The notes beneath the pieces were generated by a model. That model made no database searches. It was given only the letters and a program-made list of their open reading frames with translations, and was not told where the DNA came from. Below are positions 29,531 through 64,000 of a DNA stretch of 64,000 nucleotides, in pieces. The translations under genes were made by a program, and so were the position numbers. The first letter of the stretch is position 1. Every line of letters starts with the position of its first letter. Source of the stretch: a virus; the IMG/VR virus record IMGVR_UViG_3300049846_001717, positions 1-64,000 of that record; one strand, 5' to 3'.

Positions 29531-29602
29531 AGCTCGTGGCGAGGCTTGAACTCGCTTCTTTCGTTTTAGAGACGAAGGCACCGGCCGATATACCACACGA
29601 GC
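29531..29602 (-). tRNA. Amber suppressor tRNA, anticodon CUA
   Basis: All four arms fold: acceptor GCTCGTG/CACGAGC, D-arm, anticodon stem TTCGT/ACGAA with the 7-nt loop CTCTAAA, short variable loop and T-arm GCGAG/CTCGC. U33 is kept and positions 34-36 read CUA, pairing with UAG. N73 is U. The first 20 bases resemble the neighbouring tRNA-Val(GAC). The amino acid it carries cannot be told. Confidence 0.9.
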
Positions 29603-45707: not shown

Positions 45708-47330
<1,623 letters not shown>

Positions 47331-48389: not shown

Positions 48390-48719
48390 TTACACCTCGT
48401 TAATGAATGTTGCGTAGTGAGTGATGCAGAGCGGCGGTTTGCCGTCATGTTCTTTGCGTCGGATGCCGAATTTTCCACAGACCATACAGGTACGAGCGGT
48501 TTCTTGAAGAATCGATTTAGCAAACCGTTTGAAGATTTCTGAATGGGGTGATGTACCATCATCTTCCAGATACAACACCCCGTCCTTGATTTCCACCCGC
48601 GTCAATCGTACTTGTAACGTCTGTACTGCATCACGAATGACGTCAACGGTATGGGCCCATCCCGGTGGCAACGTACCGAGTGTGTGATGGGTTTGAAGAT
48701 AGCTCTTGATAGTAGACAT
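48390..48719 (-). CDS. Small protein with C-terminal zinc motif
   Basis: A 109-residue protein. CMVCGKFGIR and LCITH near the end form a likely zinc site of a type seen in small phage proteins. Its start overlaps the stop of the ABC ATPase gene, linking it to that operon. Confidence 0.6.
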   Translation of the reverse strand: MSTIKSYLQTHHTLGTLPPGWAHTVDVIRDAVQTLQVRLTRVEIKDGVLYLEDDGTSPHSEIFKRFAKSILQETARTCMVCGKFGIRRKEHDGKPPLCITHYATFINEV

Positions 48720-49549
48720 TACGCCAACGTCTTGAATCGAGTTTTGATCTCACGAACCGTGTCAGCGAAATTCGGCTGTTTGTCCGGTTCGGGATGCCAA
48801 CAAATGTTACGTTCGATCAGATTGTATTCTTCCACGATTCGAGCACCGGGAATCGATGATCCATCGGGATTGTGATCTCGACCCAACAACCAGATATGAT
48901 CGGCAACTGACACGGCGGCCGTAACGTCGTGGGTGACCACAACAATCGTGTTGAAATCCGCAACGTTACCTAGTGCATGGATCATATCCATAACCTGTCG
49001 TTGAACAATCAAGTCCAGTCCAGAAAACGGTTCGTCCATGGACAAGAAATGTTCGGAACACATCATCTGCTGGGCGATGGACACTCGTTGGCGCTGACCA
49101 CCCGACAACTGTGCCGGATATACGTCTCGCTTATCGGTCAGTCCAAATCGTTCAAGGAACGATTGAATTTTGTCTCGAAGCGCCGCGCCCTTCAATCCTG
49201 CTTGTGCACCAGCAATAGCAAGATTGTCATAGACTGTACGCCAATCGAACAACAGATAATTCTGTGGCACCTTGCCAACGAGGCCTGCTCGTACCGGCAC
49301 GCCGTCCGGTCCCAACAAGACTTCACCCGATGTGGGCGCCCGAAGACCCGTGAGTACCTGTAATAGCTGGGTTTTGCCGATGCCACTGGGTCCGAGCAAT
49401 CCAATGATCTGTCCTTGTGCCATGTCCGGCCGTTTGATATCCCGAACGGTTAGATTGACATCACGAAGGATCGGATTACCACCCAACGTCAAATTGACAT
49501 TGCGGACTTGGAGAATGGTGGCGTCATATTTGTATGCAAAGTCACTCAT
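48719..49549 (-). CDS. ABC transporter ATPase, nitrate/taurine (SsuB/TauB) type
   Basis: A 276-residue protein with Walker A GPSGIGKT, signature LSGGQRQRVSIAQQ, Walker B FLSMDEPFSG and H-loop VVVTHDVTA. It powers an importer of the sulfonate/nitrate type. Genes for the permease, a periplasmic protein and coiled-coil proteins precede it on the strand. Such a full set in a phage is unusual. Confidence 0.9.
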   Translation of the reverse strand: MSDFAYKYDATILQVRNVNLTLGGNPILRDVNLTVRDIKRPDMAQGQIIGLLGPSGIGKTQLLQVLTGLRAPTSGEVLLGPDGVPVRAGLVGKVPQNYLLFDWRTVYDNLAIAGAQAGLKGAALRDKIQSFLERFGLTDKRDVYPAQLSGGQRQRVSIAQQMMCSEHFLSMDEPFSGLDLIVQRQVMDMIHALGNVADFNTIVVVTHDVTAAVSVADHIWLLGRDHNPDGSSIPGARIVEEYNLIERNICWHPEPDKQPNFADTVREIKTRFKTLA

Positions 49550-49550
49550 A

Positions 49551-50342
49551 TTACTTACGTCCTGCTGTAGTTAGTGACGCGTGTGGACAGAGTTGCCGTT
49601 TGAGATAGACGAAGAATCCATCCTGCAACAAGCCGAACAATAGAAACATGAGTTGAATGGCGAAGATGATTTCGAGATTCAAATGTCGTTCTTGATTTGC
49701 AAGAACCACACCTACACCACCCTCGTATCGAACCAATACCTCAACACTGGTCAACATCATCCAGACCATTGCGGCATTGCCTCGAATCAAGTCAAGCATT
49801 TTGTCCAGTGTGCCTAGTACGAGAACTTCCCACACAATATGCCACTCCGACATGCGAAGGGTTCGGGCGTGTTCGAATCGTTCAGTCGGCACATTTTGAA
49901 GTACATCATCCACCGACGGCAACAGGAATACGACACCGAAGAAGGTCAGAAGGAAGATTTTCAACTCATGTCCGTCGGCCGCGAGGAAATTAAAGAGCAA
50001 TCCAAGGCCTGCCATTGCGAGAAATCGACCCAGCGAAATGGCTTTGACAATCGGACGAAACACTGGCAGTGCCGTAAGATACCCGAGCGCCAGTGAAATA
50101 CCAACGACAAGGCCCACCGCTTCGAAATTTGTCCATAGACTACTGAGCATGGACGCGGCGAAGCTCGTGTTATCCAGTTCAAGACTCCATAACTGAGTCC
50201 ATGTAACGAGAATGGCCCACGGAGACGGAAAAATCGCCGGGAGCAACGTCCAGGCCAGCAGAAATGCGGCCAGCTCGACCATGGCGATCTTAGTGAATGT
50301 TACTTTGTTGATGCTTTGATTTGGAACAAACCATCCACGCAT
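49551..50342 (-). CDS. ABC transporter permease
   Basis: About 263 residues from ATG at 50342 (a longer frame begins at 50393). Membrane helices include LAAFLLAWTLLPAIF, AVGLVVGISLALGYLTALPV, LGRFLAMAGLGLLFNFLA and IFAIQLMFLLFGLL. The loop FEHARTLRMSEWHIVWEVLVLG carries the EAA motif that docks to the ATPase. It lies 2 nt from the ATPase gene. Confidence 0.85.
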   Translation of the reverse strand: MRGWFVPNQSINKVTFTKIAMVELAAFLLAWTLLPAIFPSPWAILVTWTQLWSLELDNTSFAASMLSSLWTNFEAVGLVVGISLALGYLTALPVFRPIVKAISLGRFLAMAGLGLLFNFLAADGHELKIFLLTFFGVVFLLPSVDDVLQNVPTERFEHARTLRMSEWHIVWEVLVLGTLDKMLDLIRGNAAMVWMMLTSVEVLVRYEGGVGVVLANQERHLNLEIIFAIQLMFLLFGLLQDGFFVYLKRQLCPHASLTTAGRK

Positions 50343-50405
50343 TATGAAACTCGGAATGAGGCGGTGTAGTGGGGCCGTGGAATACGACCCCACTCACCAA
50401 CCAGT

Positions 50406-52223
50406 TTACTTGCCTTCGCCGATGACGATTTCGACACGGCGATTGAGAGCACGACCCTCGCTGGTGTTGTTGTCAGCACGCGGCGCACGTGATCCCATAC
50501 CAAGAGCACGGAGTCGGCCCGGCGGGAAGTCCGACGGCGACTTCTGTTCCAACCACTCCTGTACCGCATTGGCACGAAGCTGTGACAACGCCTCGTTCGT
50601 CGCATCACTGCCCACATTATCCGTGTGTCCGTTGATCTGGACATAGGAACCACGTGCGATAACCAAATGATTGTACAGTTCATTCAATACACGGATCGAC
50701 TGCGGCGTGAATTCTGCCGATCCGGTTCGGAACGTGATGGTATACGAACCACGAGCGAACACATTGGTCATCTGTGCGGCGCCTGAGTACGTAACCTGTT
50801 CGGCCGAGGCGGTAACCGTCGGCGTCATGGCACGCGCCGCATTCACCGCGCCGAGATAGACCACCGATTCCAACGGTGGATAACTCGGATACAAATTCGG
50901 ATACTGCTGAACTACGATATCACCGAACGTAATGTAGGTCGCGGCGAACGAACCATTACGAAGACCCGTCTCCAGGCCGAAGGCATCGATGTTGTCCGCG
51001 AGATTGGCAACACGACTTCCGCCGAGTTCCACCATCAATCCCTGTACGTCCTTCTCTACGACGCCCTTGAAATACTTCTCCCAATACTTGTAATCATTTT
51101 CGGCGTAAAGGGCGGCCGACGCCTTCATTGCGGCCGTGAGAGCGGACGGATAGGCATTGATCTGATCCGCGGCTTCCCACGTTGCGGCCAACATTTCGGC
51201 CACCGCCTGAGTATTCTCCACCGCCACCTTACGGATCATAATGACCGTAGTCGGCATCTGCAACGTCCACTGACGGGTAGACGCGATATTCACCAGTCCA
51301 CCCTTTTGACGGGCCACATTCACATCGCCCGGCGTCCACGTTACCGTGCCGTCAACACAAACACGCTTCCGTTCACCGGTACGCTTACCTTCCCGTACCA
51401 CAGGACGTTCTTCGCAGTAGCCAGCAATGTACTTGGCCGGCGCATCAAGGAAGTCCTTCGCGTTGACCCAGTTCACAGCGTCCGGATCATAGGTGGTCAT
51501 GTCCGGGTTGTTTCGAAGGTCATTTGCCTGACTATATCGCATTGCGATATTCCAGTCACCATCGGGTACATAACCCGAAATCAATGCACCACGCATCGAC
51601 TGTGGATTATCACGCCAAATCTGCGGTCCCATCAACTTGTCTTCACCGTGTGAGTAGCCGATGATACCAACAACATTGGCTACGTATTCCGGTCCAATCT
51701 TCTCCAACTGTGGATTGATGCCAGCAAGAAAAGCGCCGGCACCGTCACCCATGATGGTGACAAACGCCACACCATCCGACTGCGCGGCCCGACCTGCTTC
51801 GAGATCGGTCGCGTACTTCAATAGATCCTGCTGCATCTTCGCGACGTCATCCTGTCGGCGGAGAGACACGTTGACTCCTCGACGTTCGGCGATACTACCC
51901 TTCATCGGCACCGCGCCACCAAGGGCACCGATGAGTGCAGCGTTGCCGTTCCACGCCCAGATTTCACCAGGAATACGAGGCGTGGATAGAGCCGCCGGCA
52001 CCGAGCTTGGGAGCGGGAGCTGTGCGACCTGTGGTCGGACTCGACGAGTCGTGCCTGAATCGGTCAACGCCTCGGCCGCGATACGGTTCGGCACCAGCGA
52101 TGCCATGGTCTGTCCAAGGTATCCGCGTTCCGCGCCGAACTTGATACCGGCGCCGATGAGGGCGAGGACGGCGATGAGCCCAAGATTCTTGAGCAACTTG
52201 TGAGCCTTCGGAGTTAATGCCAT
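50406..52223 (-). CDS. Periplasmic ABC-binding-like protein fused to OmpA domain
   Basis: A 605-residue protein. An N-terminal membrane anchor (LGLIAVLALIGAGIKFGAE) leads to a domain of about 350 residues like sulfonate/nitrate-binding proteins (TVIMIRKVAVENTQAVAEML). The last 110 residues are an OmpA-like peptidoglycan-binding domain (ITFRTGSAEFTPQSIRVLNE, INGHTDNVGSDATNEALSQL, RALNRRVEIVI). The fusion would hold a substrate-binding protein at the cell wall next to the phage permease. Confidence 0.85.
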   Translation of the reverse strand: MALTPKAHKLLKNLGLIAVLALIGAGIKFGAERGYLGQTMASLVPNRIAAEALTDSGTTRRVRPQVAQLPLPSSVPAALSTPRIPGEIWAWNGNAALIGALGGAVPMKGSIAERRGVNVSLRRQDDVAKMQQDLLKYATDLEAGRAAQSDGVAFVTIMGDGAGAFLAGINPQLEKIGPEYVANVVGIIGYSHGEDKLMGPQIWRDNPQSMRGALISGYVPDGDWNIAMRYSQANDLRNNPDMTTYDPDAVNWVNAKDFLDAPAKYIAGYCEERPVVREGKRTGERKRVCVDGTVTWTPGDVNVARQKGGLVNIASTRQWTLQMPTTVIMIRKVAVENTQAVAEMLAATWEAADQINAYPSALTAAMKASAALYAENDYKYWEKYFKGVVEKDVQGLMVELGGSRVANLADNIDAFGLETGLRNGSFAATYITFGDIVVQQYPNLYPSYPPLESVVYLGAVNAARAMTPTVTASAEQVTYSGAAQMTNVFARGSYTITFRTGSAEFTPQSIRVLNELYNHLVIARGSYVQINGHTDNVGSDATNEALSQLRANAVQEWLEQKSPSDFPPGRLRALGMGSRAPRADNNTSEGRALNRRVEIVIGEGK

Positions 52224-52253
52224 TTGAAACTGTTCTCCTATTGGAGTGAAAGA

Positions 52254-53252
52254 TTACTTCTTGACGGAAAGGAAATCGGAAAGTGCTGCGTCCGGAGTTG
52301 ATACAACCAACTGGGCAGGAACATTCGACGGGGTTCCGGCAGTCAGGAGACCCTGACTTCCCATCGTACCCAACTGCTTCTTAAGGTCGGCAAGACCTTC
52401 GTTACGAAGGGCTCGCTTGTTCAGGTCAATAGACCCAGCGGCCGTTCGTGACGTTTCTACGAGGATTTCGAGCTTCGCACGCTTCTCATTGTACTGCGTA
52501 CGGATTCGATCGGTCGCGGCGTCATACATTTCACGCTTGGCACCACCCGCAAGAACGGCCGAGATCTTGTTGTTCGCGGAACCCATCGCCTGGGCCGCCG
52601 CATGTCGCTGCGTCTCCAGCTGAACCTGTGTCTTGGTCGTGCTGATTTCGTAGTCCACACGCTTCAGCGCTTCGATGAGGTCTGCAATACCACTGTCCAG
52701 ATCGACGCTCATTTCGGCCAGTTCATCACTGGCTCGCTTGATGGCCGCGGCGTTTTCCAACGCGGCGTTCACCGAGAGGTCTTCTTCCACCGATGTACCA
52801 GCAGCGGCGTGATCGCGAATGCCGGCTTCGGCCTGACTCTGATATTCCTTGATATTCTTCCGATACGCGGCGACCTGCATATCCAACGTACGCTTGGCGC
52901 CCTGTACTTCGGAAATCGCTTCCACCAACTTCGCCCGCTGGTCGATGGCGAACGCAAGGAAGGACTGCATGATGGACACCGGGTCCAAATCAATGACGAG
53001 ACTCGTCATCCATCGGCTGATCATCTGAAAGAGATACCAGGCCGTGTCACTTGTCACGATCTTGTAAATCAGACCCAGTCCCGCCAACAGACCACCCAAC
53101 ATATAGATGTTGGTGGCGGCGGTGATGAGAATCGGAAATACGAGATTGATCAATAGTGCGGCCGGTACGGCTAACACAGCGAGTAGAATGTAACCCGCTT
53201 TACCTTCCGGACGCTTCCAAAAGGACGTAGTGTTCGTATCAGAAGTGTTCAT
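52254..53252 (-). CDS. Membrane protein with long coiled coil
   Basis: A 332-residue protein. Membrane segments at about 19-38 (AGYILLAVLAVPAALLINLV) and 40-65 lead to a helical, Ala/Glu-rich coiled coil (LVEAISEVQGAKRTLDMQVA). It resembles envelope-stress (PspA-like) or scaffold proteins in overall shape. It overlaps the next gene by 4 nt and probably partners the ABC cassette. Confidence 0.7.
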   Translation of the reverse strand: MNTSDTNTTSFWKRPEGKAGYILLAVLAVPAALLINLVFPILITAATNIYMLGGLLAGLGLIYKIVTSDTAWYLFQMISRWMTSLVIDLDPVSIMQSFLAFAIDQRAKLVEAISEVQGAKRTLDMQVAAYRKNIKEYQSQAEAGIRDHAAAGTSVEEDLSVNAALENAAAIKRASDELAEMSVDLDSGIADLIEALKRVDYEISTTKTQVQLETQRHAAAQAMGSANNKISAVLAGGAKREMYDAATDRIRTQYNEKRAKLEILVETSRTAAGSIDLNKRALRNEGLADLKKQLGTMGSQGLLTAGTPSNVPAQLVVSTPDAALSDFLSVKK

Positions 53253-53872
53253 GAAATGAGATTGGCTGAAATGAGGTCGCGGTCGTGTTCAAGTTGAGAC
53301 GCCACTACATTCGCCGCCATCTGTAGTTGCGCTTGTTTCGTACGAAGTTCAGCATCGATCGATTGACGCTGGGATTCTGCCGTAGCCACCTTCACTCGAA
53401 GTTCGGTGATGGCCACTTCCAACTTTGCCCGTTCTGCGTTCAACGTATTGATTTCGGTGGTCTTCGCCGTAATCTGGTCGGTCAGTAGATTGGACAAACT
53501 GGACTGTAGATGTTCCGTTGCTGACTTCAGCAACCGGATTCGATCGGTGACCGAATCGAGAATCTGTTGTGCCGTGAGCGATCGGAGGCGCATCACGCTC
53601 TTCATCGCGGTTCGTGCTCGGACATTTGGATCGGCGATGTCCTGTGCCAGATCACCATTCATCGTGACGAAATCGGTATATCCGGGAACCGAAGACTGAT
53701 TGATCTTGTCTTGGATGATTCGTAGCGCCCGGTCATCCATTGGAACACTAGACGTCGTTGCGGCCGTTACCGTTGGCGGTAACGTCGAGGAAGGAATAGA
53801 CGAAACAGGCTTCGGAGCCGGCACATCATCCGTCACTAATCCCTGATCACGAAGAAAATCTCTGATACCCAT
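53249..53872 (-). CDS. Coiled-coil protein of the ABC cassette
   Basis: A 207-residue protein: Pro/Thr-rich N-terminus, then a long coiled coil (EINTLNAERAKLEVAITELR). It overlaps the membrane coiled-coil gene. It is the first gene after the intergenic inverted repeat, so it may be under its control. Confidence 0.65.
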   Translation of the reverse strand: MGIRDFLRDQGLVTDDVPAPKPVSSIPSSTLPPTVTAATTSSVPMDDRALRIIQDKINQSSVPGYTDFVTMNGDLAQDIADPNVRARTAMKSVMRLRSLTAQQILDSVTDRIRLLKSATEHLQSSLSNLLTDQITAKTTEINTLNAERAKLEVAITELRVKVATAESQRQSIDAELRTKQAQLQMAANVVASQLEHDRDLISANLIS

Positions 53873-56898: not shown

Positions 56899-57171
56899 CT
56901 ATTCAATAAAATCCGTCACCACACGTGCCGCGGCTTTGCCCACCGTTTTGAATGTGGCGAGTGGTGTTAGTGTGTCGTTGACTTTGCGTCGTGCTTCATA
57001 TTGTCGCTTGCCCACCACTTCAATCGTACCAATTTCCTTGCCATTCAAGAACACCACTCCGGTATTCGGAATGTCCGGTGCGACTTCAATACTCACATGT
57101 AGATGTTCGTAAATGCCATGATCCTTGACCACGCCATATTGAATGTAATGATCTCCAAATTTCTTTAACAT
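56899..57171 (-). CDS. Small hypothetical protein
   Basis: 90 residues (MLKKFGDHYIQYGVVKDHGI...) with beta-type centre (TGVVFLNGKEIGTIEVVGKR). Its start overlaps the stop of the next gene. No family is recognised. Confidence 0.55.
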   Translation of the reverse strand: MLKKFGDHYIQYGVVKDHGIYEHLHVSIEVAPDIPNTGVVFLNGKEIGTIEVVGKRQYEARRKVNDTLTPLATFKTVGKAAARVVTDFIE

Positions 57172-58238: not shown

Positions 58239-58393
58239 TAATACTCTCCTCGAAAGAACATCACTACGTAGGGAATCCAGTTCCATGCCACCGGATGCAG
58301 GTCTGCACGTGGGATATGGTCACAATACACCAACCCCCATGCTATACAATATCCCGTGGTTATATACCAGCCTATCAGAAATATGAATGTCAT
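58238..58393 (-). CDS. Small membrane protein
   Basis: 51 residues with a hydrophobic N-terminus (MTFIFLIGWYITTGYCIAWG). It is overlapped at both ends by neighbouring genes in the same operon, which supports its reality. Confidence 0.55.
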   Translation of the reverse strand: MTFIFLIGWYITTGYCIAWGLVYCDHIPRADLHPVAWNWIPYVVMFFRGEY

Positions 58394-58821
58394 CCAAAAT
58401 ATTCAGTGTCGAAAAAGACGAATCGATTGTTGTGAAATCCTACATTTCCTGGCCCAATGTCGAACAGAGACAACTTATCCGACAACCGGTGAATCGCAGA
58501 CGCATGACGAAGATATTGACTATCCGTCAACACCGTCACACGTTGTTGTACCAATACGCCGTCAATCAACGTCGTATAGGGCACATGATCTCGATATTTG
58601 GACCGTCGGACGGATTGAATGAAGTACAGTTCATCCTCTAATGGTTGATGTGCACCATCCCATCGGGTCTTCAATACCCAGTGGTCATTCATTACACAAT
58701 ACCGACTGACCCCAGCTGCAAATTCGGTGAATCCTAATCGTTGTAATGTTGGATCGGCCACCGGATCCGACGACTGTCGAACATGGGGCGCAGCCGAACG
58801 AACGTGAACAGGTAAGTACAT
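58390..58821 (-). CDS. Minimal protein-kinase-fold protein
   Basis: A 143-residue protein. VLKTRW gives a possible nucleotide-binding Lys, EDELYFIQSV a helix-C Glu, FDIGPGNVGF the catalytic-loop pattern DxGxxN, and FVFFDTEYFG a DFG-like site. Kinase-like phage proteins of this kind are small and may be inactive. The pattern is suggestive but short. Confidence 0.55.
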   Translation of the reverse strand: MYLPVHVRSAAPHVRQSSDPVADPTLQRLGFTEFAAGVSRYCVMNDHWVLKTRWDGAHQPLEDELYFIQSVRRSKYRDHVPYTTLIDGVLVQQRVTVLTDSQYLRHASAIHRLSDKLSLFDIGPGNVGFHNNRFVFFDTEYFG

Positions 58822-58880: not shown

Positions 58881-59135
58881 TTAGATCACACATTTGAACT
58901 GATCGGCTATAATATTTTTCCGTACTGGAAAGGACGCACGATGTATAAGTCGATTACCATCCCGGCTCTGCACAGAATCCTCCACAATATAGTTTGGAAT
59001 CTTATTGGTGAACACGTTCGCCACATAGTTGATCGTGCCGCTACCCAGGTAAAACTCCACGTAACACCGGCCATCCGTCACATACAGATCGTACGGTAAC
59101 ACACCGGCGCTACAAGCAATGATGTATTCAGTCAT
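58881..59135 (-). CDS. Tandem-family protein, copy 1
   Basis: 84 residues (MTEYIIACSAGVLPYDLYVT...), end FPVRKNIIADQFKCVI. The core AN-V...KIPNYIVE replaces the common SIAGV...DIP. It lies furthest downstream and is among the most divergent. Confidence 0.75.
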   Translation of the reverse strand: MTEYIIACSAGVLPYDLYVTDGRCYVEFYLGSGTINYVANVFTNKIPNYIVEDSVQSRDGNRLIHRASFPVRKNIIADQFKCVI

Positions 59136-59386
59136 GGTAATATGATTTCAAAGTCTGCCGCCGTGATACCAGGTCTGACCGGAAAACTCACGACATATCG
59201 TCGTAGACCGGCGATCGGGCTAACCTCATATAGTTGCATCTCAAGATCCGGGATTTCACCAAAGTCCACGTTCGCAACGGACCAGATGGTACCCGTATCG
59301 ATTTCAAATTCCAAATAGCACCGATTGTTGTAAACTTCTATATCCGATGGCGGATTGTCGGTACATGCAATGGGATAGGGTTTCAT
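59132..59386 (-). CDS. Tandem-family protein, copy 2
   Basis: 84 residues (MKPYPIACTDNPPSDIEVYN...), core SVANVDFGEIPDLEM, end FPVRPGITAADFEIILP. It overlaps copy 1 by 4 nt and is its closest relative. Confidence 0.78.
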   Translation of the reverse strand: MKPYPIACTDNPPSDIEVYNNRCYLEFEIDTGTIWSVANVDFGEIPDLEMQLYEVSPIAGLRRYVVSFPVRPGITAADFEIILP

Positions 59387-59628
59387 TGGAGCACAATGTA
59401 AAAGTCCGCCGACGTCACTTCGGGACGAAGACTAATCGTCACAATGACGTCACTTGGTGAACGCGTGATCGTTTTGACTTGGTCCGGGATATCAACCCAA
59501 TCAATCCCCGCGATCGAATATAAACACGGATTCCCCGTCAGCGGTTTGGTCCATCGCAGATATAACGTGTGAGTACCCACGGACATATAGTCAGGACGAA
59601 TGCCGCATACAATTTTGTATTTGCTCAT
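59383..59628 (-). CDS. Tandem-family protein, copy 3
   Basis: 81 residues (MSKYKIVCGIRPDYMSVGTH...), core YSIAGIDWVDIPDQV, end LRPEVTSADFYIVLQ. It overlaps copy 2 by 4 nt. Confidence 0.8.
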   Translation of the reverse strand: MSKYKIVCGIRPDYMSVGTHTLYLRWTKPLTGNPCLYSIAGIDWVDIPDQVKTITRSPSDVIVTISLRPEVTSADFYIVLQ

Positions 59629-59885
59629 ATGATATGATATGTAAAATCATCCAATGTAATACCGGGACGAAGTCGTAAGATTGCGGTCATGTCGATGCCA
59701 CGCGACTTGGATACATACGTCATTCCAAACGAGTTGGAGGGAATATCACGCCAATGAACACCCGCGATCGACGCCAATGGATCCACGCCAGGGGCTAGAT
59801 GCAGCCATTCAATAATCAGTAGATTCTCTTCGGTTCTGATACTGATCGGATACCGGGTCATGAGAATTTCGTAACGACCGTTCAT
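59625..59885 (-). CDS. Tandem-family protein, copy 4
   Basis: 86 residues (MNGRYEILMTRYPISIRTEE...), core ASIAGVHWRDIPSNSF, end LRLRPGITLDDFTYHII. It overlaps copies 3 and 5. Confidence 0.8.
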   Translation of the reverse strand: MNGRYEILMTRYPISIRTEENLLIIEWLHLAPGVDPLASIAGVHWRDIPSNSFGMTYVSKSRGIDMTAILRLRPGITLDDFTYHII

Positions 59886-60142
59886 TAGTATAACCGAAAT
59901 TGAAAATCGGATAGTGTCACGCCAGTACGAAGATGCAGCATCATCTGCAAATGTCCCGTGTCATCGTACTGTTGTTGTCGTATCAATCGGGACTCCGGAA
60001 TTCGATGTATCGGCACTTCGGCAATCGACAGTAATGGTTCTATCTTTGATGATATGTTGAACCATGACAAGATCAAGTATCCATTTGTCACCTGACAATG
60101 ATCCGGCATGTGTTTGACGACAATCGTGTATTTGCCGATCAT
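59885..60142 (-). CDS. Tandem-family protein, copy 5
   Basis: 85 residues from ATG at 60142 (MIGKYTIVVKHMPDHCQVTN...); the longer frame upstream belongs to copy 6. Core LSIAEVPIHRIPESRL, end LHLRTGVTLSDFQFRLY. Confidence 0.78.
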   Translation of the reverse strand: MIGKYTIVVKHMPDHCQVTNGYLILSWFNISSKIEPLLSIAEVPIHRIPESRLIRQQQYDDTGHLQMMLHLRTGVTLSDFQFRLY

Positions 60143-60402
60143 ACGACCACCATTGTGAAATCGTACTGGGTCACAGTTTCTCGAAGGTATACGAACATTG
60201 TAATTTGTACACTCCCGTCGGCAAATGCCACACGACGGACGAATCGACAATGTCGAGGAATATGCGTGAACGGCACTCCAGCGATCGTCACGGCCGGAAA
60301 TGTACGATCCGGTAATCGTTCCCAATTCAAAATTAATTGATGTTGCCACACCGCCCATCGATCGATGGCGTGTGACGTGCGAATTTCATACGGACCATTC
60401 AT
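60139..60402 (-). CDS. Tandem-family protein, copy 6
   Basis: 87 residues from ATG at 60402 (MNGPYEIRTSHAIDRWAVWQ...), core VTIAGVPFTHIPRHCR, end VYLRETVTQYDFTMVVV. It overlaps copy 5 by 4 nt. Confidence 0.78.
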   Translation of the reverse strand: MNGPYEIRTSHAIDRWAVWQHQLILNWERLPDRTFPAVTIAGVPFTHIPRHCRFVRRVAFADGSVQITMFVYLRETVTQYDFTMVVV

Positions 60403-60659
60403 ACAATTTTCACGATGAAATCGTCGTTGGTCAATCCCACACGGAGGTTCAGAATCATGACAGAATTCACCAGACCGTCCGAACGGAGGGCCGTGTGTGT
60501 TCGATACACGGAGAACGGAATGTCCATGACAGACACACCGGCAATGGAAAGCACCGGTACGGTAGGATCGGATAATGCGAACCACATCAACTTCAATTGC
60601 TGCTGATCTACCCAACCTTGTGTCGGCGATATCGTACATCGAATCTCATAAGGCTTCAT
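60399..60659 (-). CDS. Tandem-family protein, copy 7
   Basis: 86 residues from ATG at 60659 (MKPYEIRCTISPTQGWVDQQ...), core LSIAGVSVMDIPFSVY, end LNLRVGLTNDDFIVKIV. It overlaps copies 6 and 8 by 4 nt each. Confidence 0.78.
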   Translation of the reverse strand: MKPYEIRCTISPTQGWVDQQQLKLMWFALSDPTVPVLSIAGVSVMDIPFSVYRTHTALRSDGLVNSVMILNLRVGLTNDDFIVKIV

Positions 60660-60938
60660 ACCAGCTCCATAATGAAATCCGCCGTCCGGATTCCCGGTCG
60701 CACCGGAAAGGCAACCAGCCATCGATAGTGATAGGGGGAGCCGTTCGAGCAGACGACCCCGTCGCGGAACGGCGATTCGATCCACACCACATCCGGAATA
60801 TCCGTAATTGGAATACCACACACTGTGCGCCGGACACGGGCCAGACCGTGTGGACCACCATGTGAGATACATCACGCCGCTGATAATACTGGTGGCATGG
60901 GGTGACCGGGTACACCGGACCGGATATCGTGCGGTCAT
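60656..60938 (-). pseudogene. Tandem-family copy 8, frameshifted
   Basis: Starts at 60938 (MTARYPVRCTRSPHATSIIS...) and matches copy 9 up to CPAHSV, then the frame is lost. The family text VCGIPITDIPDVVWIESP continues in another frame to RPGIRTADFIMELV and TGA at 60656. The length is 3n+1, so one extra base (or two lost) lies near 60835. It may be a dead copy, a sequencing error or a slippage switch at GTGTGTG. Confidence 0.7.
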
Positions 60939-61198
60939 ACCACCACCAATTCGAAATCCTTCGACAGAACTCCCGATCGCACCGGAAAGCCGAGAGTCCA
61001 TCGATATCGATTGGGTACGCCAAGGATCAGAGTCTCATCACACTGTACACCCGGGATATCTTCGATCGGGATCCCACAGACCGAGATCGCCGGACACCTT
61101 ACTTGGCCCGTGAAATACCAAATGAAATAGACATTGTCGTTGAGCTTATATCGGGAGTCCGGCAGTCGGATACACCGGACCGGATATCGTGCGGTCAT
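60935..61198 (-). CDS. Tandem-family protein, copy 9
   Basis: 87 residues from ATG at 61198 (MTARYPVRCIRLPDSRYKLN...), core ISVCGIPIEDIPGVQC, end FPVRSGVLSKDFELVVV. Close relative of copies 8 and 10. Confidence 0.8.
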   Translation of the reverse strand: MTARYPVRCIRLPDSRYKLNDNVYFIWYFTGQVRCPAISVCGIPIEDIPGVQCDETLILGVPNRYRWTLGFPVRSGVLSKDFELVVV

Positions 61199-61452
61199 AC
61201 AATCCTCACTTCGAAATCCTCTGGCATCACGCCGGCCCGGACTGGAAAACCCACCGTCCACCGATGTGAGTCCGTGATCACGCTGGATTGCGGATCTTCA
61301 TGGCACCACACCCGTGGAATATTTGCAATCGGAACATCACAAACCGTGAGTGCCGGACACGGGCTGCGAAATTTAGTCCACCACACGAAATAGATACAGT
61401 CTTCGAGCTTATATCGAGTATAGGGGACTTGGGTACAATGGAGAGGGTACAT
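61195..61452 (-). CDS. Tandem-family protein, copy 10
   Basis: 85 residues (MYPLHCTQVPYTRYKLEDCI...), core LTVCDVPIANIPRVWC, end FPVRAGVMPEDFEVRIV. A gap of about 100 nt follows before copy 11. Confidence 0.8.
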   Translation of the reverse strand: MYPLHCTQVPYTRYKLEDCIYFVWWTKFRSPCPALTVCDVPIANIPRVWCHEDPQSSVITDSHRWTVGFPVRAGVMPEDFEVRIV

Positions 61453-61555
61453 ATTTACCTAAATGTGTATAACAGTTCTGGCTGATTTTACCTATCGCCT
61501 ACAGGAAAACGGACTAGGTCGGGGTATTCGCAATGCGATCCTGTTTGGGCCCTAT

Positions 61556-61840
61556 TTATTCAACACCGAAATCCTGGATGGTCAAGCCCTCACGGATCGG
61601 AAATCTGATTTTGATGCCGATCCGATCCTGAACGGCCCGATCCTGAACGGCGAACTCCGGCAGGCCGTCAATGTAGTATGTGATCTCACATCGGGGGATC
61701 TGATCCACAATCCGGCCACAGACCGTCACGATCCATGCGTCGTTTGGCTTCATACCCAACACGATCTCGGCCCATCCCTCACAAAATGTGCATCGCCACA
61801 GGCTCGTGCCGATGATGCGTACTGGATATTTGACTACCAT
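61556..61840 (-). CDS. Tandem-family protein, copy 11
   Basis: 94 residues, the longest copy (MVVKYPVRIIGTSLWRCTFC...), with a direct repeat AVQDRAVQDR not seen in other copies. End FPIREGLTIQDFGVE. Confidence 0.75.
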   Translation of the reverse strand: MVVKYPVRIIGTSLWRCTFCEGWAEIVLGMKPNDAWIVTVCGRIVDQIPRCEITYYIDGLPEFAVQDRAVQDRIGIKIRFPIREGLTIQDFGVE

Positions 61841-62073
61841 GAGAAATCCTTAAATTGAACGCCGGGCCTCACATTGAAGAAGAAAATATAGCCGGAGTGA
61901 TCGGTCGAGGGCCGCCAGGTGCCGCGTGGGATCAGGTTGGCATCGACATCACAGACGGTCAGGATGATCTCATGTGGATCGCCGATATGTTCGATCAGGA
62001 TGGCGGCGACGCCGTTAAAGACGTCCATTTCAAGGATCCGCTTATTGCAGACGACCGGATATTTGGCTACCAT
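61834..62073 (-). CDS. Tandem-family protein, copy 12
   Basis: 79 residues, the shortest copy (MVAKYPVVCNKRILEMDVFN...), core LTVCDVDANLIPRGTW, end FNVRPGVQFKDFSW. Confidence 0.75.
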   Translation of the reverse strand: MVAKYPVVCNKRILEMDVFNGVAAILIEHIGDPHEIILTVCDVDANLIPRGTWRPSTDHSGYIFFFNVRPGVQFKDFSW

Positions 62074-62321
62074 GTGAAATCATCCGCGCCGACGCCGGAT
62101 CGGACCGGAAATGCGATGGTGACCGTATTGGTGCCGTAGATATTCCAATTCGGGATATCAACGAATGACACGCCACACACGGTCAATTCGATCTTATTCA
62201 TGAGCCGTGCGGCCAAATGCACCATGATGTGCGTGCGTTCGACGCCGCGACTGAATGAGGTCTTGACCGTTTGTGAGACGCCCAGAATGGGGTGATTGGC
62301 AACGATCGTGTACTGTTTCAT
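62067..62321 (-). CDS. Tandem-family protein, copy 13
   Basis: 84 residues (MKQYTIVANHPILGVSQTVK...), core LTVCGVSFVDIPNWNI, end FPVRSGVGADDFTW. It overlaps copy 12 by 7 nt and follows the helical gene directly. Confidence 0.78.
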   Translation of the reverse strand: MKQYTIVANHPILGVSQTVKTSFSRGVERTHIMVHLAARLMNKIELTVCGVSFVDIPNWNIYGTNTVTIAFPVRSGVGADDFTW

Positions 62322-62668
62322 TACATGTCCAGTGCTTCCCGATCCGGGTAGCGGGCCTCGCTCGAGATATGGGAGAACATCGGCAGGTCGATGGCCTCGG
62401 CCAACTGGCCTCGCAGGGCGATCAGGTCCGCCAGATGTTTGTCGAACTTGACCAGATGCGCTCGTGCCTTCGCCGAATCACTGGCGGATGCGGACAGGTT
62501 GGCATCAAAGGTATTTTCGTCGCCGCGCCGAGCTGACTCGGATGCCATCTGATCCGTTTCGATAGACCAGGTCAGGCAGGCATCCAGCTTCCCTGCGGCT
62601 TCGTGGAGATAAGAGGCCTTCGAGGTCATGGCCGAGATCAGTTTCAGGTCCGGATAGGATCGGGGCAT
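62321..62668 (-). CDS. Helical hypothetical protein within the tandem array
   Basis: 115 residues, mostly helical (MTSKASYLHEAAGKLDACLT), unlike the family. It overlaps both neighbours by 1 nt. No family is recognised. Confidence 0.6.
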   Translation of the reverse strand: MPRSYPDLKLISAMTSKASYLHEAAGKLDACLTWSIETDQMASESARRGDENTFDANLSASASDSAKARAHLVKFDKHLADLIALRGQLAEAIDLPMFSHISSEARYPDREALDM

Positions 62669-62916
62669 TAGTACACTTCCTCGTATTCGACGTTGGTGAA
62701 GCCCAGATCCGTGAAGACCTGCTTCAACAGTTCGTGTGACTCTTCCTGATCGATGGAATATCGCTTGTTGTTGACCATGATGGCAACGCGGCCGGCCTCA
62801 TCCTCGATCCGGATGGGGGTTGTCATTCGTGCCCGCAACGCGATCAATTCGGCTCGATCATCGTTCTGGGCTTTGATGTTGGCGGCGTTGATCGCCGTAC
62901 GCTTGGGATTGGACAT
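62668..62916 (-). CDS. Small hypothetical protein within the tandem array
   Basis: 82 residues (MSNPKRTAINAANIKAQNDD...), with a short beta segment (RVAIMVNNKRYSID) and a final FTNVEYEEVY. Not related to the family by sequence. Confidence 0.6.
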   Translation of the reverse strand: MSNPKRTAINAANIKAQNDDRAELIALRARMTTPIRIEDEAGRVAIMVNNKRYSIDQEESHELLKQVFTDLGFTNVEYEEVY

Positions 62917-62918
62917 GG

Positions 62919-63173
62919 TTACACGATCTCCACTTCGAAGTCATCCTCAGTGAGGGATGGACGGACGGCAACGCTATGTTGGGGGCCTTCCATATAACGG
63001 CCGAGTGCGTCCGGGTTGATCACACTCGACATCACGGGAATGTCATCATACGCCACCCCGGCAATGGAAATGATCCGATGTCGGCGTTCGGCGATCGAAA
63101 TCCAGAACCGTCGCATTGATGCCGAGCGCTCGAACAACACTCGGCCCGTTGCTACGATCTTGTACTTAGGCAT
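62919..63173 (-). CDS. Tandem-family protein, copy 14
   Basis: 84 residues from ATG at 63173 (MPKYKIVATGRVLFERSASM...), core ISIAGVAYDDIPVMSS, end VRPSLTEDDFEVEIV. Confidence 0.8.
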   Translation of the reverse strand: MPKYKIVATGRVLFERSASMRRFWISIAERRHRIISIAGVAYDDIPVMSSVINPDALGRYMEGPQHSVAVRPSLTEDDFEVEIV

Positions 63174-63435
63174 TGACGATCTCCACTTCGAAGTCCTCGA
63201 GCGTGAGGGATGACCGGATGGCCAACGCCGGCTCGCCGTTGAAGGTAACGGTCCTGCCGAACATGCCACGCCTTCGGAAGGAGAAATCCCCTACTTTGGG
63301 AATGTCCTCCCACAGAACACCAGCCACCGAAATGATTTTGTCGTGGTGAACGGCCGGCGCGACCCATACCCGTTCACTTCTGACGGATGGTTCGATCTTG
63401 ATAGGGCCAGTGGCGACGATCTTGTATCTAGGCAT
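63166..63435 (-). CDS. Tandem-family protein, copy 15
   Basis: 89 residues (MPRYKIVATGPIKIEPSVRS...), core ISVAGVLWEDIPKVGD, end IRSSLTLEDFEVEIVNA. Copies 14-17 form a recent subgroup, sharing KYKIVATG starts. Confidence 0.82.
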   Translation of the reverse strand: MPRYKIVATGPIKIEPSVRSERVWVAPAVHHDKIISVAGVLWEDIPKVGDFSFRRRGMFGRTVTFNGEPALAIRSSLTLEDFEVEIVNA

Positions 63436-63700
63436 TCACGATCTCCACTTCAAAGTCATCGGCCGTGAGCGACCAGCGAACGGCGACGTATTGCCACGGA
63501 CGGCCCACCCGATCTTCATCACGCCGACCCAACCACGGCGGCGACTCCAATGACAGAAGTTCGGGAATATCTTCCCACATCACGCCCGCCACCGAAATGA
63601 TCCGGTAATCTACCCTGTCCGGGTAGATCCACAGTCGGTTCACATTGTCGGAATATGCAAAGGACACCGGGCCAGTGGCCACGATCTTGTACTTAGCCAT
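63428..63700 (-). CDS. Tandem-family protein, copy 16
   Basis: 90 residues (MAKYKIVATGPVSFAYSDNV...), core ISVAGVMWEDIPELLS, end VRWSLTADDFEVEIVNA. It overlaps copies 15 and 17 by 8 nt. Confidence 0.82.
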   Translation of the reverse strand: MAKYKIVATGPVSFAYSDNVNRLWIYPDRVDYRIISVAGVMWEDIPELLSLESPPWLGRRDEDRVGRPWQYVAVRWSLTADDFEVEIVNA

Positions 63701-63959
63701 TGACGATCTCGATCTCGAAGTTCTGCTGCGACAACATGGGTCGGACTGCCACGCCCTGCCGGTCTACGTAGCCTGTGACATCGCGGCCATAGACCCTTTC
63801 ATGGCCGTTCAACGTGGGGATCTTATCCCACGGCACTCCAGCGATCGACAGAATACGAACGTCGGCCGATTCCGCCTCGATCCACGTGCGTTCTGATGTG
63901 CTCGTGAATCGGAGCTCACCGGTGGCGACGATCTTGTACTTACGCGTCCGGATCGTCAT
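63693..63959 (-). CDS. Tandem-family protein, copy 17
   Basis: 88 residues from ATG at 63959 (SD GAGGGG); it overlaps the end of the upstream partial gene. Core LSIAGVPWDKIPTLNG, end VRPMLSQQNFEIEIVNG. Confidence 0.78.
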   Translation of the reverse strand: MTIRTRKYKIVATGELRFTSTSERTWIEAESADVRILSIAGVPWDKIPTLNGHERVYGRDVTGYVDRQGVAVRPMLSQQNFEIEIVNG

Positions 63960-64000
63960 CGTCCATCCCCTCGAAGTCCTGCTCATCGAACGGGACGAAC
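63940..64000 (-). CDS. C-terminus of an upstream gene, partial
   Basis: The last about 19 codons before TAA at 63940 read VPFDEQDFEGMDDDDPDA. It may be another family member or a different gene; the rest is outside the window. Confidence 0.5.
   Translation of the reverse strand, partial: FVPFDEQDFEGMDDDDPDA

What the first reader, a model, noticed from the sequence alone, without database searches (positions are those of the whole stretch)
58881..63986. Tandem family of at least 17 small proteins
The copies share a KY-x-I start, a SIAGV/TVCG...DIP core and a LRPG...DF end, but are otherwise diverse. Long tandem expansions of one tiny domain are unusual in phages and suggest arms-race variation, such as inhibitors of many host targets. 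Function is unknown.
Basis: partly seen in the sequence, partly recalled or inferred. Interest (0 to 1): 0.82.

Follow-up and report, generated by a model that had tools for sequence, protein, structure and literature searches.

The report
Phage tandem family, one diversified fold
A large, uncultured bacterial virus carries 17 neighbouring genes (plus three distant cousins elsewhere in its genome) for tiny proteins that share one predicted all-beta shape but differ strongly in one variable loop region; no relative was found in any database searched or in its closest relatives, and the pattern best fits a set of small binders aimed at different host proteins, although no target is known.

Summary
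Window 58881-63986 (minus strand) holds 17 tandem copies of one ~80-95 aa domain: 16 intact, one frameshifted. Each intact copy is recovered by a profile built from the other 15 (E 4e-19 to 2e-6). Three more diverged copies lie at 93.0-95.4 kb of the same 98 kb record (independent profile-profile probability 97%). Most genes overlap by 1-8 nt, neighbours resemble each other, and core spacing is rigid while one hairpin is hypervariable in sequence and length. No credible match was found in Pfam, PHROGs, NCBIfam, PDB, phages, plasmids, 138 related records, or peptide scans of viral and GTDB contigs; a colinear relative lacks the array. Most likely it is a lineage-specific array of small scaffold proteins diversified to bind different host or defence proteins, working like a bacterial polyimmunity locus; targets are inferred, not shown. 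Tiny-domain expansion in giant phages has a precedent (Bacillus phage G, ~35 zinc ribbons), so this is a new variant, not a new category.

The parts
63693..63959 (-). copy 1 (upstream in-frame ATG at 63986)
63428..63700 (-). copy 2 (AF2 model m5c05265b0af7)
63166..63435 (-). copy 3
62919..63173 (-). copy 4
62668..62916 (-). unrelated 82-aa ORF interrupting the array; no Pfam or PHROG match
62321..62668 (-). unrelated 115-aa ORF interrupting the array; no Pfam or PHROG match
62067..62321 (-). copy 5 (ends just after the DF motif)
61834..62073 (-). copy 6 (ends just after the DF motif)
61556..61840 (-). copy 7 (longest hairpin, 33 residues between P48 and R68)
61195..61458 (-). copy 8 (GTG start)
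60935..61198 (-). copy 9
60656..60938 (-). copy 10, frameshifted: N-terminal half in one frame, C-terminal half in another
60399..60659 (-). copy 11
60139..60402 (-). copy 12
59885..60142 (-). copy 13
59625..59885 (-). copy 14
59383..59628 (-). copy 15 (AF2 model mbb3819ee249e)
59132..59386 (-). copy 16
58881..59135 (-). copy 17
56899..57171 (-). downstream synteny anchor, conserved in relative G001 at 64104-64448 (49% identity)

Best explanation
The array is a lineage-specific, tandemly duplicated family of small all-beta proteins that serve as a binding scaffold. SHOWN by sequence or model: one predicted fold; a core of fixed spacing (the S38-P48 and R68-F76 segments have identical length in all 16 intact copies); a hypervariable region (residues 49-64), with 16 to 33 residues between P48 and R68; gene overlaps of 1-8 nt at most junctions; absence from a colinear relative. 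INFERRED: the genes are co-translated from one transcript in the host cytoplasm, and different copies bind different host proteins (defence effectors or other host factors) through the variable hairpin, each blocking its partner by stoichiometric binding. In effect it would work like a bacterial homogeneous polyimmunity locus, but carried by a phage and aimed at host proteins. New specificities would arise by tandem duplication and divergence, and broken copies such as copy 10 would be the other side of the turnover.
For: Leave-one-out homology of all 16 intact copies. Two AF2 models, one from copies 1-4 alone, give the same order of strands, with short helical turns at the IP and DF motifs. 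Fixed core against variable hairpin, and the highest entropy of any 16-residue window at 49-64. Net charge runs from -8 to +2 in the array (to +4 with the distant copies), so the surfaces are not of one chemical type. Open frames kept and dN<dS in all close pairs, so the copies are under protein-level constraint. Neighbours more alike; 4-nt ATGA or 7-8 nt overlaps at most junctions. In the colinear relative G001 the interval between anchors is 3.5 kb rather than 9.25 kb and holds other small genes. The flanks of this accessory region carry conflict-type domains: a cyclic-phosphate-processing receiver (PF20274) upstream in both phages, and a Macro domain just beyond the downstream anchor in G001. 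Precedents for phage counter-defence by gene amplification: PMC9391042 and PMC13096335.
Against: No copy matches any known inhibitor or immunity family, and no target or activity is known. dN<dS is not the signature of recent positive selection, although dS is near saturation so the test is weak. The conflict-type neighbours are weak guilt by association. The phage is uncultured and its host is unknown. The fold is predicted only, and I could not map variable residues on coordinates.
Confidence: 0.42

Rival explanations
1. The copies are structural or assembly proteins: paralogous subunits of a hetero-oligomer, such as capsid decorations, or virion-packaged proteins injected into the host.
For: All-beta small domains are common in virions, and the very weak structural matches include beta-sandwich Ig domains (Z at most 3.4). 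The conserved core could be a subunit interface.
Against: The array lies about 40 kb from the structural genes (window 3.7-19 kb), in a variable accessory region. A colinear relative with the same virion genes lacks it. Seventeen divergent subunits would be unusual. The structural matches are at noise level.
Confidence: 0.13
2. The copies bind nucleic acid or act in regulation (for example transcription or RNA factors), each with its own site, as suggested for the zinc-ribbon expansion of Bacillus phage G.
For: Precedent in PMC7824862. A small beta barrel or sandwich can bind nucleic acid. The record also carries a long tRNA cluster and tmRNA.
Against: Net charge runs from -8 to +4 and is near zero in most copies. 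There is no invariant basic residue beyond one arginine, no conserved cysteine pattern (copies 1-4 have no cysteine) and no consistent match to any nucleic-acid-binding family.
Confidence: 0.15
3. The expansion is a dosage or drift product: copies do the same thing or nothing specific, and diversity has simply accumulated.
For: Copy 10 is broken. dN<dS fits ordinary constraint. Tandem duplications arise readily in phages (PMC9391042, PMC13096335).
Against: Identities of mostly 15-30% with nearly all frames intact, in a virus under pressure to stay compact, argue for long retention with separate roles. Dosage amplifications are made of near-identical copies. The core is fixed while one hairpin varies in length.
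Confidence: 0.2
4. The copies are antitoxins or superinfection-immunity proteins of the phage itself, protecting against toxins of competing phages or mobile elements.
For: Homogeneous polyimmunity loci have this layout (PMC3482391).
Against: No toxin gene was recognised beside the array, no immunity family matches by Pfam scan, and the interrupting ORFs have no match.
Confidence: 0.1

Closest known systems
Homogeneous polyimmunity loci of bacteria (tandem paralogous immunity genes, e.g. SUKH; PMC3482391)
   Same: Tandem array of small, distantly related paralogs in one orientation with little or no space between them; content varies between close relatives; no toxin genes recognised inside.
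   Different: In a phage, not a bacterium; the domain matches no immunity family by Pfam scan; no toxins are known; two loci in one genome, and 17 copies of one family.
Zinc-ribbon expansion of Bacillus phage G (~35 copies; PMC7824862)
   Same: Lineage-specific expansion of one tiny domain in a large phage, function unknown.
   Different: Here an all-beta domain without conserved cysteines, in one compact overlapping gene array with a second small cluster.
Segmental amplification of anti-defence genes in T4-like phages (tifA, PMC9391042; SegB-driven amplification, PMC13096335)
   Same: Tandem duplication of small phage genes; shown there to overcome host defence.
   Different: Those repeats arose recently under laboratory selection; here copies are only about 13-54% identical and anciently diverged, and no amplifying endonuclease was identified beside the array.

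Membership tests
Homogeneous polyimmunity locus (PMC3482391) | Tandem, distantly related paralogs in one orientation with short or no intergenic gaps | tested here: met
   17 copies, all minus strand, 1-8 nt overlaps at most junctions
Homogeneous polyimmunity locus (PMC3482391) | Copies belong to a known immunity family | tested here: inconclusive
   No Pfam, NCBIfam or PHROG family matched consistently; hmmscan of single sequences may miss remote members
Homogeneous polyimmunity locus (PMC3482391) | Content differs between close relatives | tested here: met
   Array absent at the colinear place of relative G001, though that relative is not very close (66% identity in the baseplate protein)
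Homogeneous polyimmunity locus (PMC3482391) | Copies neutralise toxins by binding | not testable with these tools
   needs expression and binding assays
Zinc-ribbon expansion (Bacillus phage G) | Conserved metal-binding cysteines in every copy | tested here: not met
   Copies 1-4 and 14 have no cysteine
Segmental amplification of anti-defence genes (TifA type) | Near-identical repeat copies | tested here: not met
   Highest pairwise identity in the alignment is 54%
Immunoglobulin-like beta sandwich | Structural match to Ig domains | tested here: inconclusive
   Best Z 3.4 over about 61 residues, at noise level; the second model ranks gyrase A pieces first at Z 3.5

The most novel reading that the evidence does not exclude
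A phage-borne 'polyimmunity' array: about 19 intact scaffold-sharing proteins, each neutralising a different host defence effector or host factor through a hypervariable hairpin, evolving by tandem duplication within one lineage on a fold not matched to any solved structure.
Probability: 0.28. Interest if true: 0.85.

Novelty: new variant of a known kind. Interest (0 to 1): 0.58.

Why it matters
If the copies bind different host proteins, the array is a ready-made natural library of binders on one small scaffold, and a way to find unknown host defences by pulling down with each copy. It would also give a clear case of diversified, not merely amplified, gene arrays in phage counter-defence. Even without a function, it defines an orphan domain family with confident models from only 16 and 4 paralogs.

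Tried and rejected
Homologues: tblastn in phages and plasmids, viral-contig scans with subgroups A2, A4, A6 and one single copy and genome-contig scans gave nothing credible; these scans reach close relatives only. Profile search of 138 related records, three of them named phage genomes, found nothing, with the own record as positive control in two of the three runs. Single weak family matches (ectB, E 6e-4 in one member; Proteasome_A_N; HalOD1; FKBP_C; MoaF_C) were rejected as chance: one member each, none consistent. Sequence search of PDB gave only E>0.5. Foldseek: no E<=0.001 for either model; VIA-align best Z 3.5. I do not claim the fold is new. hhalign against small genes of the relative's equivalent region found no hidden homologue. 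Promoter and terminator scans were not informative. Zinc ribbon and DNA mimicry were rejected on cysteine and charge content. Literature searches for a described phage array of this kind found only the phage G precedent.

Full report
WHAT WAS CHECKED. The window is bases 1-64000 of a 98,055-base virus record with a long tRNA cluster and a tmRNA, GroEL, baseplate and other tail genes: a large tailed phage, possibly a fragment. Its baseplate wedge protein is about 43% identical to that of Microcystis phage Mel-JY01 and 39% to Flavobacterium phage immuto, so no close cultured relative exists in the collection searched.

THE ARRAY. Minus-strand ORFs give 17 copies from 63959 (or 63986) down to 58881. 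Sixteen are intact, 79-94 aa; copy 10 is split over two frames and both halves still match the profile, so it is either a young pseudogene or a sequence error. Two unrelated ORFs (62321-62916) separate copies 4 and 5, and a gap of 97 bases separates copies 7 and 8; nearly all other junctions overlap by 1-8 nt, often as ATGA, which suggests one polycistronic message with coupled translation (inference). Five residues are invariant in the 16 copies: Y4, I47, P48, R68 and F76.

MORE THAN CHANCE. Each copy was left out, a profile was built from the other fifteen, and the left-out copy was sought among shuffled versions of itself and the other ORFs of the record. All were found at E 4e-19 to 2e-6; the best competitor had E 0.008.

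MORE COPIES. The profile of the array also reaches three ORFs at 93010-93276, 93273-93554 and 95128-95382 of the same record. A profile of the array that excludes them aligns with a profile of the three at 97% probability, E 5e-11. The genome thus holds 20 copies at two places, 19 of them intact.

FOLD. AlphaFold2 on copy 15 with the 16-row alignment gives pLDDT 94.0, pTM 0.80; copy 2 with only copies 1-4 gives pLDDT 88.5, pTM 0.79. Both show the same order of strands with short helical turns at the IP and DF motifs. Neither model has a significant Foldseek match in PDB, nor the first in the viral library; the second look by VIA-align stays at Z 3.5 or less.

HOW THE COPIES DIFFER. Pairwise identity is mostly 15-30%, up to 54% in subgroups, and neighbours are more alike than distant copies (Mantel r -0.31, p 0.001), as expected of tandem duplication. 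The S38-P48 and R68-F76 segments have identical length in all copies; the P48-R68 segment varies from 16 to 33 residues and holds the most variable 16-residue window. Charge varies from -8 to +4 over all copies. dN is below dS in all close pairs, with dS near saturation: the proteins are constrained, and positive selection is neither shown nor excluded.

DISTRIBUTION. The record G001 (IMGVR_UViG_3300044998_000260, 105 kb) is colinear with ours. Between the same two anchors it has 3.5 kb instead of 9.25 kb, with other small genes and no copy of the family. Searches of 138 related records, three of them named phage genomes, found no copy. Database and contig scans were empty or gave only chance matches. 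The family is thus known from one record; the scans reach close relatives only, so distant homologues may exist.

MECHANISM. The evidence fits a binding scaffold with a rigid core and one diversified hairpin, produced as a set from one gene array. The most economical reading is that different copies bind different partners. In a phage accessory region flanked by conflict-type domains (cREC PF20274; a Macro domain in the relative), host defence effectors or other host factors are the likely partners. Steps shown: homology, common predicted fold, tandem origin, overlapping genes, lineage restriction, variability pattern. Steps inferred: co-translation, binding, diversity of partners, inhibition.

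COMPARISON. In layout it works like a homogeneous polyimmunity locus of bacteria (PMC3482391), but membership is not established: no immunity family was detected and no toxin is known. In being a tiny-domain expansion in a large phage it resembles the ~35 zinc ribbons of Bacillus phage G (PMC7824862), from which it differs in lacking conserved cysteines. It differs from laboratory-selected segmental amplifications (PMC9391042, PMC13096335) in the age and divergence of its copies.

VERDICT. A real and striking array of an orphan family with confident models and an unassigned fold; the functional claim is moderate. New variant of a known kind; interest 0.58.

Noticed in passing
window 48719-53872: A cassette with an ABC ATPase (PF00005), a permease-like protein, a 605-aa protein ending in an OmpA domain (PF00691) and two coiled-coil/membrane-like proteins; absent at the colinear place of relative G001 (60699 to 60946).
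   Followed up: partly
window 29531-29602: ARAGORN reports a tRNA with anticodon CTA (amber-reading, called tRNA-Pyl) in the tRNA cluster; TAG is still found at the end of 5 of 41 long minus-strand ORFs and of three array copies, so a general amber recoding looks unlikely.
   Followed up: partly
record G000 about 60-66 kb; G001 about 66 kb: G+C content rises from about 46% to about 60% across the array, and a similar step occurs at the matching place of the relative; third-position G+C is 0.65-0.74 in copies 1-7 and 0.45-0.58 in copies 8-17.
   Followed up: partly
window 45708-47327: A complete phage-borne GroEL (539 aa), 64% identical at best to other viral-contig GroELs.
   Followed up: no
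window 58390-58821: 143-aa protein just downstream of the array, weak PHROG 4301 match (E 0.0045), with a D....N...D pattern that recalls a minimal kinase-like fold (impression only).
   Followed up: no
G001 63602-64093 (L116:3602-4093): Macro-domain protein (PF01661, E 4.5e-20) beside the equivalent accessory region of the relative.
   Followed up: partly
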